The notes under the pieces: model-generated | What the model was told of the DNA's origin: nothing | Databases searched by the model: none | The model's input: the letters and a program-made list of their open reading frames with translations, nothing else | Part shown: positions 12,805-14,793 of the stretch, piece by piece | Layout: each line of letters starts with the position of its first letter | Position numbering within the stretch: position 1 is the first letter of the stretch | NCBI GenBank assembly: GCA_024278775.1 | Contig: JAJRSP010000015.1 | Location: 1 to 19,142 of the forward strand | Reading direction: 5' to 3' | Origin: Planctomycetota bacterium | GTDB taxonomy: Bacteria; Planctomycetota; Phycisphaerae; UBA1845 | DNA length: 19,142 nt | Made by a program: the position numbers and the translations under genes

Positions 12805-13173
12805 ATGGAAAAGACGGAAAAACTGACCATCGGGGAGGTGGCCCGGGCGGCGGGCGTGGCCGCCACCACGCTTCGGTACTACGAGCGTGAGGGTCTGCTT
12901 TCACCAACTGGTCGAAGCCGTGCGGGCTATCGCTTGTACGACGAAGAGGCCGCCGAGCGGTTGGAGTTCATCCGGGCGGCGCAGGCCGTCGGGTTCACGC
13001 TGGGCGACATCCGCGCGCTCCTGGAGCTAAACGGAGACTCCCCGTGCAGGCAGGTGCAGGCGTTGATCGAACGACGGCTGACCGATGCTCTTGAGCGTTG
13101 CCGCAAATCAAAAAAAGGGTGCGCCGTCGTGGCGGACTTAAAACGAAACCGCAGAAAACGGAGATCAAACTGA
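12805..13173 (+). CDS. merR: MerR-family metal-responsive transcriptional regulator (shortened dimerization helix)
   Basis: DNA-binding regulator of 122 residues. The winged helix-turn-helix is typical: LTIGEVARAAGVAATTLRYYEREGL, then GYRLYDEEAAERLEFI and GFTLGDIRALLEL. Three Cys (C81, C99, C106) match in order the metal-binding Cys of mercury MerR. In Tn21 MerR, however, about 35 residues separate the first two Cys; here there are 18, so roughly half of the long dimerization helix appears missing. The C-terminus is unusually basic (KRNRRKRRSN). GAGG lies 9 nt before ATG 12805. Its TGA stop overlaps the next ATG by one base (TGATG). The metal is unproven; the neighbours suggest mercury or another thiophilic metal. 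Confidence 0.85.
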   Translation: MEKTEKLTIGEVARAAGVAATTLRYYEREGLLSPTGRSRAGYRLYDEEAAERLEFIRAAQAVGFTLGDIRALLELNGDSPCRQVQALIERRLTDALERCRKSKKGCAVVADLKRNRRKRRSN

Positions 13174-13502
13174 TGGGAACATTCAAAACTCGAATGCTGG
13201 CTTCTGTCGCCGTCGTGGGACTGGTAGCCCTTGCAAGCCTTGGGTATGCGAAGTCGCGCGCGGAGCGGGCGGACTGCCCGGGAAAGATTGTCTGTCCGGA
13301 GACGGGCCAGCTCATCTGCCGGGACAAGTGCCCGATGATTGACCAGAACCGCCCGGACTGCCCCGGTAAAGTGATCTGCCCCCTCACCGGGAAGCTGGTA
13401 TGCAAGGATCGCTGCCCGCTCGGCGGCACGGCCACGAAGAACATGGGCACGAAGACCACGGATGCAAAGGACAAGCCGGCCTGCTGTGCGAAGAAAGGCT
13501 GA
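13173..13502 (+). CDS. Secreted cysteine-rich protein with two four-Cys repeats
   Basis: No family recognised. The 109-residue protein has a clear signal peptide (basic FKTR, hydrophobic core ASVAVVGLVALASLG, likely cleavage after residue 26). The mature part holds two near-identical units, residues 34-54 and 62-82, each with pattern DCPGKxxCPxTGxLxCxDxCP (C35/C41/C49/C53 and C63/C69/C77/C81). A terminal CC (104-105) brings the total to ten Cys. This suggests metal binding or disulfide cross-linking outside the cytoplasm. ATG 13173 overlaps the merR stop and has GGAG 9 nt upstream; an in-frame upstream ATG at 13098 lies inside merR and is rejected. The stop overlaps the next start (TGATG), so translation is probably coupled. 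Confidence 0.8.
   Translation: MGTFKTRMLASVAVVGLVALASLGYAKSRAERADCPGKIVCPETGQLICRDKCPMIDQNRPDCPGKVICPLTGKLVCKDRCPLGGTATKNMGTKTTDAKDKPACCAKKG
13272..13418 (+). repeat. Tandem intragenic repeat encoding the four-Cys units
   Basis: Two 63-nt units, 13272-13334 and 13356-13418, start 84 nt apart and encode the DCPGKxxCPxTGxLxCxDxCP modules. The third positions differ while the Cys, Pro and Gly positions are kept, which points to an old duplication under selection. Confidence 0.75.
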
Positions 13503-13957
13503 TGACGGCCGGCCACGCCAACGACGACGACCCTATTGCGGAAAGCGCGCCGCGACGGGGCCGTCCGGCTTGGCTGCAAACGCTCATCGCCATTCCGGCA
13601 GCGGTGTTGCCGCTTTTGCCGAGTTTTTCGTGCCCGGTGTGTGTCGCGGCCTACGCTGGCCTGCTCTCTTCGCTCGGTTTGGGATTTCTACTCACGGATC
13701 GGGTGCAACGGCCGTTGATCGTCGCGTTCCTGATTGTCTCGGTGGCCGGTGTGGGCTGGGCGGCAAGGCAATACAACAAGATCGGTCCGTTGGTGCTTGT
13801 CCTACTTGGTTCCGCCGGGATCATCGCAGGCCGCCTGATCTGGAACATACCCTCCGGGCTTTACGTCGGCGTGGTCTGCCTCGTAGCAGGCACCGTCTGG
13901 AATCTGATACTGAAGCGGCCCCAGAAGAAAAAGAAGAAAAGGTGTCATGAAGAATGA
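13502..13957 (+). CDS. MerC-like membrane protein with CPVC motif
   Basis: Predicted inner-membrane protein of 151 residues with four or five TM segments (about 26-44, 46-66, 71-88, 95-112, 119-137). A Cys pair, C44-P-V-C47, sits at the start of the second hydrophobic stretch and is followed by AAYAGLLSSLGLGFL, resembling the CxxC.. GLGFL region of the mercuric transporter MerC. A third membrane Cys is C126, and the C-terminus is a Lys run ending in a Cys/His (KKKKKRCHEE). Likely role: transport or membrane-side binding of the operon's metal. ATG 13502 overlaps the preceding stop by one base, with AAAGG just upstream. Assignment to MerC is by local pattern only. Confidence 0.7.
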   Translation: MTAGHANDDDPIAESAPRRGRPAWLQTLIAIPAAVLPLLPSFSCPVCVAAYAGLLSSLGLGFLLTDRVQRPLIVAFLIVSVAGVGWAARQYNKIGPLVLVLLGSAGIIAGRLIWNIPSGLYVGVVCLVAGTVWNLILKRPQKKKKKRCHEE

Positions 13958-14040: not shown

Positions 14041-14793
14041 ATGAATGGGATCATTACCTTGACATTCGCGTGTATCCTCGCAGCATCGGTATCATGTCAC
14101 AGTGCCGCAGGGGACTCACCGACTGCGGAACCGCCGGGTGTCGGTACCTCGAAGGCGGCGTCGTCGGTCCACAAGAAAGTCGCGTTCCATGTCCTCGGGC
14201 TGATGAAAACCAAGTCGGGCGCGACGTGACTGGGGTGACCGAACAAGGTCACAGCGTCCCTGGAAGGGACGAAGGCAACGAAGCGCATCACTTGGGATTA
14301 CGGTAAGGATCGCGTCACCATCGAATACGATCCGAAGCTGACGACGCCGAAAAAACTGGCCAAGGTCATCACCGATCTTGGATACAAGGCAGAGGAGACT
14401 GAAGTACCGAAGGCAGAGACCGATGCGAAGCAGGTGAAGCCCGTCAAAGCGCCGATACCGGACGACGCGCCTCAGTTTCTTCGCGACGCCTTCGACGCGG
14501 CGCGTCGAGCCAAGCAGCCGATCATCGTTGATTTCTGGGCCGCGTGGTGCGCGCCGTGTCTGAAATTGAAAAAGCTCACGTTCCACGACCCGGAGGTCGC
14601 CAAACTCCTTAACAAGGTGCAACTGGTCTTCGTCGATCTTGATAAGTATCCGGCGCTGGGGACGGCCTTCAGCGTGGAATCCGTGCCGGATCTGTTCCTG
14701 ATTGACCGCAAGGGAATGATCGTGGATCGGCTACACCACTTCGGGCCGCCGGAAGCGTTCCTCGTTCGGCTGAGGCGGTTGCTCGACGAGTAA
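14041..14793 (+). CDS. Putative selenoprotein: secreted HMA (UxxU) - thioredoxin fusion, two in-frame TGA codons
   Basis: One frame runs from ATG 14041 to TAA 14791 (250 residues), interrupted only by TGA at 14227 and 14236 (positions 63 and 66). GGAGAG lies 8 nt before the ATG. An N-terminal signal ends ASVSC (C19), possibly a weak lipobox. An HMA/MerP-like domain spans about 45-117: VAFHVLGLMKTKSGAT, U63-L-G-U66, PNKVTASLEG, RVTIEYDPKLTTPKKLAKVITDLGYKAEE. The two TGA fall on the metal-binding CxxC, giving UxxU if read as selenocysteine. A charged linker leads to a thioredoxin-fold domain (about 141-250) with WCAPC (C170, C173) and the cis-Pro P216. Both halves keep frame and family sequence, which argues against decay. 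A hairpin with SECIS features follows the TGA pair. The alternative is a pseudogene with two nonsense changes; a conventional reading would stop at 14229 and miss the HMA core. Confidence 0.75.
14235..14271 (+). promoter_or_regulatory. Candidate bacterial SECIS element (tandem hairpins)
   Basis: The main stem is CGTCCCT (14255-14261) with AGGGACG (14265-14271), seven perfect pairs capped by GGA, or six pairs with loop TGGAA. The loop starts 23 nt after the second TGA and 32 nt after the first, inside the usual bacterial window, and has G at its first positions as SelB recognition requires. Immediately upstream, GTGACC (14235-14240) and GGTCAC (14247-14252) form a second perfect 6-bp stem with loop GAACAA; this one contains the second TGA. 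Confidence 0.65.

What the first reader, a model, noticed from the sequence alone, without database searches (positions are those of the whole stretch)
14041..14793. Two in-frame TGA codons replace the CxxC of an HMA domain: a probable UxxU selenoprotein fused to thioredoxin
Seen: one frame from 14041 to 14793 is broken only at 14227 and 14236 by TGA, spaced exactly as the Cys codons of CxxC. Sequence on both sides (VLGLM.. before; PNKVTASLEG and EYDPKLTTPKKLAKVITDLGYKAEE after) aligns with MerP/HMA domains, putting both TGA on the metal-binding Cys. The downstream thioredoxin domain is intact with WCAPC. Ordinary genes nearby end in TGA, so the code is not reassigned. Known: selenocysteine usually replaces Cys, and selenols bind mercury very tightly. 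I recall genome annotations using names such as HMA-domain (seleno)protein, but know of no characterised diselenol HMA-thioredoxin fusion. A conventional gene call would truncate it at residue 62 or begin at residue 132, so the HMA core would be lost.
Basis: partly seen in the sequence, partly recalled or inferred. Interest (0 to 1): 0.95.

Follow-up and report, generated by a model that had tools for sequence, protein, structure and literature searches.

The report
Double-selenocysteine metal-binding protein fused to thioredoxin
In this piece of bacterial DNA, and in 47 of 48 related genes, both metal-binding cysteine codons of a small metal-carrier domain joined to a thioredoxin are replaced by UGA, which is predicted to be read as selenocysteine, so that the protein would likely grip a soft metal such as mercury between two selenium atoms.

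Summary
Observation confirmed: frame 14041-14793 is interrupted only by TGA at 14227 and 14236, at the two cysteine positions of an HMA (heavy-metal) domain, followed by an intact WCAPC thioredoxin domain. It is not a quirk of one contig. Of 49 loci typed with the fusion (this window plus 48 in 43 genomes of the same phylum, Planctomycetota), the HMA motif is UxxU in 48 and UxxC in one; CxxC in none. In the window a hairpin that fits the published bacterial SECIS model for both UGA codons follows them; it covaries across the family. The four closest genomes hold SelA, SelB and SelD; three of the four hold tRNA-Sec. Selenocysteine insertion is very well supported, though no protein was seen. 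Beyond the finding: the thioredoxin site is itself UxxC in 15 of 49, and three members carry four in-frame UGA. MerR, MerT or MerC relatives lie near 23 of 49. Best reading: an exported diselenol metal carrier kept reduced by its own thioredoxin in a mer-like system; metal and function are inferred, and MerA reaches its cut-off in 0 of 13 related genomes. A UxxU metal-binding domain alone is already catalogued (NF041115); the fusion appears in no listing I could read.

The parts
14041..14793 (+). UxxU-HMA-thioredoxin gene, 250 residues with TGA read as Sec, stop TAA
14227..14229 (+). first in-frame TGA (residue 63), first metal-ligand position of the HMA loop
   Evidence: TGA in 49 of 49 loci
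14236..14238 (+). second in-frame TGA (residue 66), second metal-ligand position
   Evidence: TGA in 48 of 49 loci, TGC in L194
14255..14271 (+). SECIS-like hairpin H2, 7 bp, loop GGA; 23 nt between second UGA and loop, 32 nt from the first; -9.8 kcal/mol
14235..14252 (+). hairpin H1 that contains the second UGA in its 5' arm; role unknown
14212..14388 (+). HMA domain (residues 58-116)
   Evidence: PF00403; MerP 1osd, TM 0.89 by target
14473..14787 (+). thioredoxin domain (residues 145-249) with WCAPC at 14545-14559; top-ranked solved fold is DsbD gamma
12805..13173 (+). MerR-family regulator, upstream in the same orientation
13173..13502 (+). small Cys-rich protein with CPGK/CPETG repeats, no family over a cut-off; found in 9 of 49 loci, the window included
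13502..13957 (+). MerC-like membrane protein
   Evidence: PF03203, 37.5 bits, cut-off 27.6

Best explanation
The gene at 14041-14793 has UGA at both metal-ligand positions of an HMA domain fused to a thioredoxin, and these codons are predicted to be read as selenocysteine, giving a likely exported protein that would bind a soft metal between two selenolates and be kept reduced by its own thioredoxin domain. Shown by sequence: the two UGA codons, the two domains, their conservation, a covarying hairpin downstream, and neighbouring MerR- and MerC-like genes. Inferred: SelB, bound to hairpin H2, delivers Sec-tRNA at both UGA codons, since the hairpin's spacing (23 and 32 nt) suits both. Inferred: the signal-like N terminus sends the protein across the membrane. 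Inferred: the UxxU loop captures the metal (Hg(II) is my first choice; Cu(I), Ag(I) and Cd(II) remain open) and hands it to the MerC- or MerT-type membrane protein, while the DsbD-gamma-like thioredoxin reduces the diselenide that would otherwise form. In 15 of 49 family members the thioredoxin's first active-site residue is itself a UGA codon.
For: UGA at both positions in 48 of 49 loci, and at the first in 49 of 49 (L161 read by eye). Hairpins in 15 close sequences: covariation score 0.126 against 0.050 shuffled, 0 of 500 shuffles reach it. In 48 sequences: 0.232 against 0.109, 0 of 500; slid controls at most 0.087. SECIS-model hairpin at -5 kcal/mol or better after the second HMA UGA in 47 of 47, against 343 of 1469 background codons; at the Trx motif after UGA 11 of 15, after Cys 4 of 33, p = 0.002 on energies. 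SelA, SelB and SelD over cut-off in 4 of 4 closest genomes, tRNA-Sec(TCA) in 3 of 4. MerR, MerT or MerC relatives in 23 of 49 loci against 0 of 76 neighbourhoods of other thioredoxin genes. AlphaFold model mean pLDDT 81.3 with two confidently predicted domains; HMA resembles MerP, Trx resembles DsbD gamma.
Against: No protein, selenium or metal measurement exists. The window's own genome is not held. Of the 13 genomes of the same order with the gene, SelA is over cut-off in 9, SelB in 8 and tRNA-Sec found in 7; G410 shows none of them. SelA is over cut-off in 93 of 114 genomes of that order, so its presence is no specific association. Only 33 of 47 HMA hairpins and 3 of 15 Trx-UGA hairpins reach the published -7.5 kcal/mol, and my scan (unbroken stems only) finds none after 4 of 15 Trx UGA. 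Two of five shuffle measures do not stand out (pairs changed on both sides 86 of 500, pair types 367 of 500). The outermost H2 pair is unpaired in 10 of 15. MerA over cut-off in 0 of 13. No MerR, MerT or MerC relative was found in 26 of 49 loci, some on short contigs. The window's N terminus is signal-like by eye but has no lipobox by my crude pattern, and no signal-peptide predictor was run.
Confidence: 0.68

Rival explanations
1. A diselenol oxidoreductase rather than a metal carrier: the HMA fold serves as a redox partner domain, and UxxU passes electrons between the thioredoxin and a periplasmic substrate.
For: Most known selenoproteins are thought to be redox proteins (review PMC13188914, section 7 part 1). 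The fused domain is an intact or UGA-containing thioredoxin, and some neighbours carry UU or UxxC motifs.
Against: Loci carry MerR-, MerT- and MerC-like genes and the UxxU sits on the HMA metal loop. In one genome MerT-like sequence, an HMA and the UxxU-HMA-Trx lie in one open frame (L201).
Confidence: 0.2
2. The upstream UxxU part is a decayed pseudogene and only a downstream thioredoxin piece is made, as databases annotate it.
For: Database relatives are such pieces: none of 35 hits covers more than 70% of the query, and the 18 sequences I read all lack the N-terminal part through residue 63.
Against: The same two TGA and an otherwise open frame in 48 of 49 loci, conserved residues on both sides, hairpin covariation, and codon-position differences typical of coding sequence (0.203, 0.280, 0.552 per codon position for residues 78-93).
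Confidence: 0.03
3. UGA is read here as another residue (for example Trp or Cys) through code change or suppression.
For: UGA lies in frame in a conserved gene.
Against: UGA ends 6 of 15 close family genes, a SECIS-model hairpin follows, tRNA-Sec and SelA, SelB, SelD occur in relatives, and the positions are Cys ligands in HMA domains, with a Cys codon at one of them in L194.
Confidence: 0.02

Closest known systems
NF041115 UxxU_metal_bind, metal-binding (seleno)protein (listed in PMC13188914 Table 1 as UxxU, 2 Sec, 'putative mercuric reductase')
   Same: HMA-type domain with Sec at both metal-ligand positions
   Different: A 74-position model; the window scores 30.7 bits against a cut-off of 95, 0 of 114 genomes in the order reach it, and the model has no thioredoxin part
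MerP / MerTP mercury carriers (TIGR02052, NF033556)
   Same: HMA fold, likely exported, near MerR- and MerC/MerT-like genes
   Different: CxxC rather than UxxU (recalled for MerP), no Trx; 18.4 and 30.6 bits, below the cut-offs of 92.55 and 180; MerA over cut-off in 0 of 13 related genomes
DsbD gamma domain / thioredoxin (PF00085); selenoprotein TsoB (NF045694)
   Same: Trx fold with WCxxC; top-ranked solved fold is DsbD gamma at 28% identity; the TsoB C-terminal part aligns with 63.1 bits
   Different: No DsbD membrane domain or rhodanese part in the 250 residues; TsoB cut-off of 805 not met; fused to a UxxU HMA instead
NF045683 MerT/CopZ fusion-like heavy metal transport selenoprotein
   Same: Selenium in a mer-type transport setting
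   Different: The window protein scores 13.5 bits against 375; a CopZ-MerT-HMA protein without in-frame stops is the upstream neighbour in L002

Membership tests
Bacterial selenoprotein | in-frame UGA conserved in homologues at a Cys position | tested here: met
   HMA: 48 of 49 UxxU, 1 of 49 UxxC; Trx first position: 15 UGA and 34 Cys codons (L161 by eye)
Bacterial selenoprotein | bSECIS downstream: 3-9 nt loop with G in its first two positions, stem 4-16 bp, 16-37 nt from UGA, -7.5 kcal/mol or lower (PMC13188914 section 5 passage) | tested here: met
   window hairpin: loop GGA, 7 bp, 23 and 32 nt, -9.8 kcal/mol; over the family 33 of 47 reach -7.5
Bacterial selenoprotein | SelA, SelB, SelC, SelD in the same genome | tested here: inconclusive
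   own genome not held; closest relatives: A, B, D 4 of 4, tRNA-Sec 3 of 4
Bacterial selenoprotein | selenium in the protein | not testable with these tools
   needs 75Se or mass spectrometry
NF041115 UxxU_metal_bind | curated score cut-off of 95 bits | tested here: not met
   30.7 bits; a wider family member, L170, reaches 61.5
NF041115 UxxU_metal_bind | UxxU on the HMA loop | tested here: met
MerP | curated score cut-off of 92.55 bits | tested here: not met
   18.4 bits
Thioredoxin domain protein | PF00085 above gathering score, WCxxC and the later conserved proline | tested here: met
   46.1 bits, cut-off 23.5; W169, C170, C173, P216 invariant in 15
mer operon (classical) | MerA mercuric reductase with MerR and MerT/P/C | tested here: inconclusive
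   MerR- and MerC-like genes present; MerA over cut-off in 0 of 13 related genomes, best 398.2 bits against 454.45; own genome not testable

The most novel reading that the evidence does not exclude
An unrecognised Planctomycetota selenoprotein superfamily with two to four selenocysteines runs a selenium-based soft-metal (mercury) capture system: an obligate diselenol HMA site, re-reduced by its own fused thioredoxin or selenothioredoxin and fed by MerR-controlled MerT/MerC-type proteins, working without MerA, and translated with one hairpin that serves two UGA codons nine bases apart.
Probability: 0.4. Interest if true: 0.88.

Novelty: new variant of a known kind. Interest (0 to 1): 0.76.

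Why it matters
If true, a branch of environmental bacteria binds metal with paired selenols, with the reductant built into the same chain, and standard gene calling hides it by cutting each gene at UGA. It gives a testable system for two questions: why selenium is chosen over sulphur for metal handling, and how two UGA codons nine bases apart are decoded, perhaps from one hairpin. The 2026 review table gives most families one Sec and a small subset 2-3 (PMC13188914); the four-UGA members would exceed that.

Tried and rejected
Code reassignment was rejected because TGA ends 6 of 15 close family genes. Decay or sequencing error was rejected by 48 of 49 loci with the same two TGA. Membership in NF041115, MerP and TsoB was rejected on curated cut-offs. 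An association of selA with the gene could not be shown: SelA is over cut-off in 93 of 114 genomes of the order, 9 of 13 with the gene and 84 of 101 without. A phage family library gave nothing; plasmids gave 25 records, none covering 80% of the query, the 10 listed matching only its Trx half. Rfam gathering search of the window: no match.

Rows dropped before counts. One search kept the best 80 of 396 relatives; only L001-L004 cover the HMA with both TGA, and L005-L080 (thioredoxin-type matches) served as the 76 controls. Of the 51 places, 15 align without a UxxU HMA (thioredoxin only, or L180 from query residue 75) and were not typed; one place is G002 again; two rows of G628 are one gene. 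G307/L099 is a partial Trx match and not counted. L159/L175, L155/L211, L158/L212, L167/L206, L168/L207, L169/L208 and L170/L209 are the same genes. In one search the L163 stretch was out of frame and its empty row is void. In one search one query (CxxU_HMA) was out of frame; one search repeats it in frame. One search read L002 in a wrong frame; one search shows all three.

Print status: I found no HMA-thioredoxin selenoprotein fusion in the listings (several capped lists; titles and abstract starts seen), nor in Table 1 of PMC13188914 (section 7 parts 1 and 2 read, part 3 not read; other sections by passages). Haft and Gwadz 2023, Haft and Tolstoy 2025 and Zhang and Gladyshev 2007 were not held, so they are unread and could contain it.

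Full report
What is in the window. The frame 14041-14793 (+) is open except for TGA at codons 63 and 66 and ends in TAA. Conventional ORFs are a 62-residue N-terminal piece and a 119-residue C-terminal piece. Read through, the protein has a signal-like N terminus (by eye), an HMA domain at residues 58-116 and a thioredoxin domain at 149-223 with WCAPC. The two TGA are the two ligand positions of the HMA metal loop. An AlphaFold model from 15 sequences (mean pLDDT 81.3, pTM 0.73) shows two confidently predicted domains; residues 1-41 are below pLDDT 50. In the PDB the Trx part ranks nearest DsbD gamma (1vrs, 28% identity, TM 0.75 by target) and the HMA part matches copper HMA domains and MerP (1osd, TM 0.89 by target).

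Neighbours. Upstream on the same strand are a MerR-family regulator (12805-13173), a small CPGK-repeat protein with no family over a cut-off (13173-13502) and a MerC-like membrane protein (13502-13957, PF03203 37.5 bits). Downstream, on the other strand, are two ClpP-like reading frames and a trigger-factor-like one (listed as ORFs; the names are my recall, no family search was run).

Close relatives. A genome scan kept the best 80 of 396 relatives; four of them, in Planctomycetota or Phycisphaerae MAGs (L001-L004), cover the whole fusion, all with TGA at both codons. Profile searches found the gene in 13 genomes of the order, 14 loci (14 of 114 genomes matched, one of them only in the Trx part); an even sample of the class gave 11 of 397, again one in the Trx part only. 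With the window this makes 15 genes: 15 of 15 have both TGA and a Trx WCxxC. Six of the 15 end in TGA themselves. Database relatives are truncated: none of 35 hits covers more than 70% of the query, and in the profile search (only the 7999 best candidates scored, 120 of 166 hits listed) none of those listed covers more than 74%. The 18 I read all lack residues 1-63. P0037 begins at the position of residue 64 and has Cys at the position of residue 66; the codon before it was not seen.

Wide family. A search of 392 genomes across the phylum matched 44. Of the 51 places, 34 distinct further genes carry the HMA part, in 30 genomes. Together 49 loci were typed (48 by script, L161 by eye). HMA motif: UxxU in 48, UxxC in one (L194), CxxC in none. 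Trx motif: Cys first in 34 (one of them CxxS, L188), UGA first (UxxC) in 15. Three of the 15 (L206, L207, L208 in G695, G565, G590) have a fourth TGA in IPDTUIL, where relatives looked at have Arg (CGC in L181, CGA in L174) or other residues. The Trx position, where Cys and UGA interchange among relatives, is the clearest Cys/Sec pairing; the HMA first position is UGA in all 49.

RNA element. Hairpin H2 (14255-14271) has seven pairs and a GGA loop, 23 nt from the second and 32 nt from the first UGA, -9.8 kcal/mol. This fits the bacterial SECIS constraints quoted in PMC13188914 (passage seen) for both UGA codons. In 15 close sequences three pairs change on both sides and the covariation score is 0.126 against 0.050 in shuffles, 0 of 500; but the number of pairs changed on both sides (86 of 500 shuffles as high) and of pair types (367 of 500) do not stand out, and the outermost H2 pair is unpaired in 10 of 15. 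In 48 sequences the score is 0.232 against 0.109, 0 of 500; pair types reach 1 of 500 and pairs changed on both sides 50 of 500; slid partners score at most 0.087. Six members with another register (L182, L188, L193, L199, L200, L201) are included as misses. In L002 and L003 a Gly to Glu change accompanies a silent change on the other arm, as expected if pairing is kept. The shuffle control does not remove relatedness, so these numbers are not probabilities. As an internal control I scanned for SECIS-model hairpins with unbroken stems: -5 kcal/mol or better after the second HMA UGA in 47 of 47 and after background codons of the same genes and their ends in 343 of 1469; after the Trx codon in 11 of 15 when it is UGA and 4 of 33 when it is Cys (p = 0.002). 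At the published -7.5 the counts are 33 of 47, 145 of 1469, 3 of 15 and 2 of 33, and after 4 of 15 Trx UGA none was found. A further hairpin, H1 (14235-14252), holds the second UGA in its arm; four of its six pairs form in 42 or more of 48 sequences, one in 37 and the outermost in 19, with little covariation, and I have no explanation for it.

Decoding machinery. In G001-G004 SelA, SelB and SelD exceed their cut-offs in 4 of 4 (SelD with an internal TGA in all four), and tRNA-Sec with anticodon TCA is in 3 of 4. Over all 13 genomes of the order with the gene: SelA over cut-off 9, SelB 8, tRNA-Sec 7; at least one of these in 10; fragments in G341 (SelA) and G398 (SelB); none in G410. SelA over cut-off is common in the order (93 of 114), so this shows capacity, not association. 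SelD was tested only in the four, and the 30 further genomes were not tested.

Function. MerT (without its HMA, 13 loci), MerR (21) or MerC (4) relatives occur in 23 of 49 family loci and in 0 of 76 control loci around other thioredoxin genes. The queries came from the window and L002, so two of the 23 are self matches, and the controls are from mixed phyla. The upstream neighbour in L002 is a CopZ-MerT-HMA protein, and in L201 MerT-like sequence, an HMA and the UxxU-HMA-Trx lie in one open frame. A crude lipobox pattern fits 25 of 48, one of them a MerT segment, so export is likely for many; the window itself has only a signal-like start. MerA is over cut-off in 0 of 13; the best match has 398.2 bits against 454.45, so a divergent MerA is not excluded. 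I therefore infer capture of a soft metal, Hg(II) first, by a diselenol, with reduction by the fused Trx, and probably not a classical reduction of Hg(II) to Hg(0). Metal, export and electron flow are untested.

Known and new. NF041115 already names UxxU metal-binding selenoproteins (Table 1 of PMC13188914; PMC9312934 passages), and Sec-containing Trx is in the same table. The window protein fails the NF041115 (30.7 against 95 bits), MerP and TsoB cut-offs, and 0 of 114 genomes reach NF041115. The HMA-Trx fusion with two, three or four UGA is in none of the listings I could read; three key papers were not held. I file it as a new variant of a known kind. Passages of PMC2398784, PMC1088965 and PMC8938466 were also seen; the last reports Se and Hg together with sel gene transcription in Challenger Deep sediments, which is only a plausible setting. 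PMC12013277 was searched for six terms without a match.

Noticed in passing
L206 4196-4948, L207 2274-3002, L208 4816-5520: Three family genes with four in-frame TGA: HMA UMAU, Trx UxxC and a further U in IPDTUIL, where relatives looked at have Arg or other residues.
   Followed up: partly
L004 3816-4172: A separate HMA protein with CxxU (GLSCPFUVHN) in the same island as the UxxU-HMA-Trx gene; relatives in L113 and weakly in L222.
   Followed up: partly
L002 9707-11803; relatives in L106, L107, L108, L110, L113: Downstream protein of 699 residues with two motifs SPTUGGC and SPTUPGC, no NCBIfam match and only a sub-threshold HMA match in Pfam; found in 6 of 49 loci, L002 included.
   Followed up: partly
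L158 2242-3051; L157 1507-2940: PDZ protein with two adjacent in-frame TGA (GAETUUAST); in L157 it is in one frame with the UxxU-HMA-Trx, giving four TGA.
   Followed up: partly
L003 860-1591: A Cys-only HMA-thioredoxin paralogue (CDTC and WCGPC) in the same gene cluster as the UxxU form.
   Followed up: no
window 14235-14252: Conserved hairpin whose 5' arm contains the second UGA; not part of the SECIS model.
   Followed up: partly
window 12805-13173: The MerR-like regulator lacks a 17-residue stretch compared with the 53% identical MerR of L002; its three aligned cysteines remain.
   Followed up: partly
L201: MerT-like sequence, a Cys HMA, the UxxU HMA and the thioredoxin lie in one long open frame (1631 residues).
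   Followed up: no
L194 855-911: Only typed member with Cys at the second HMA position (UxxC); its Trx site is UxxC.
   Followed up: partly
window 13173-13502: Small protein with repeated CPGK/CPETG motifs and no family over a cut-off, found in 9 of 49 loci, the window included.
   Followed up: no
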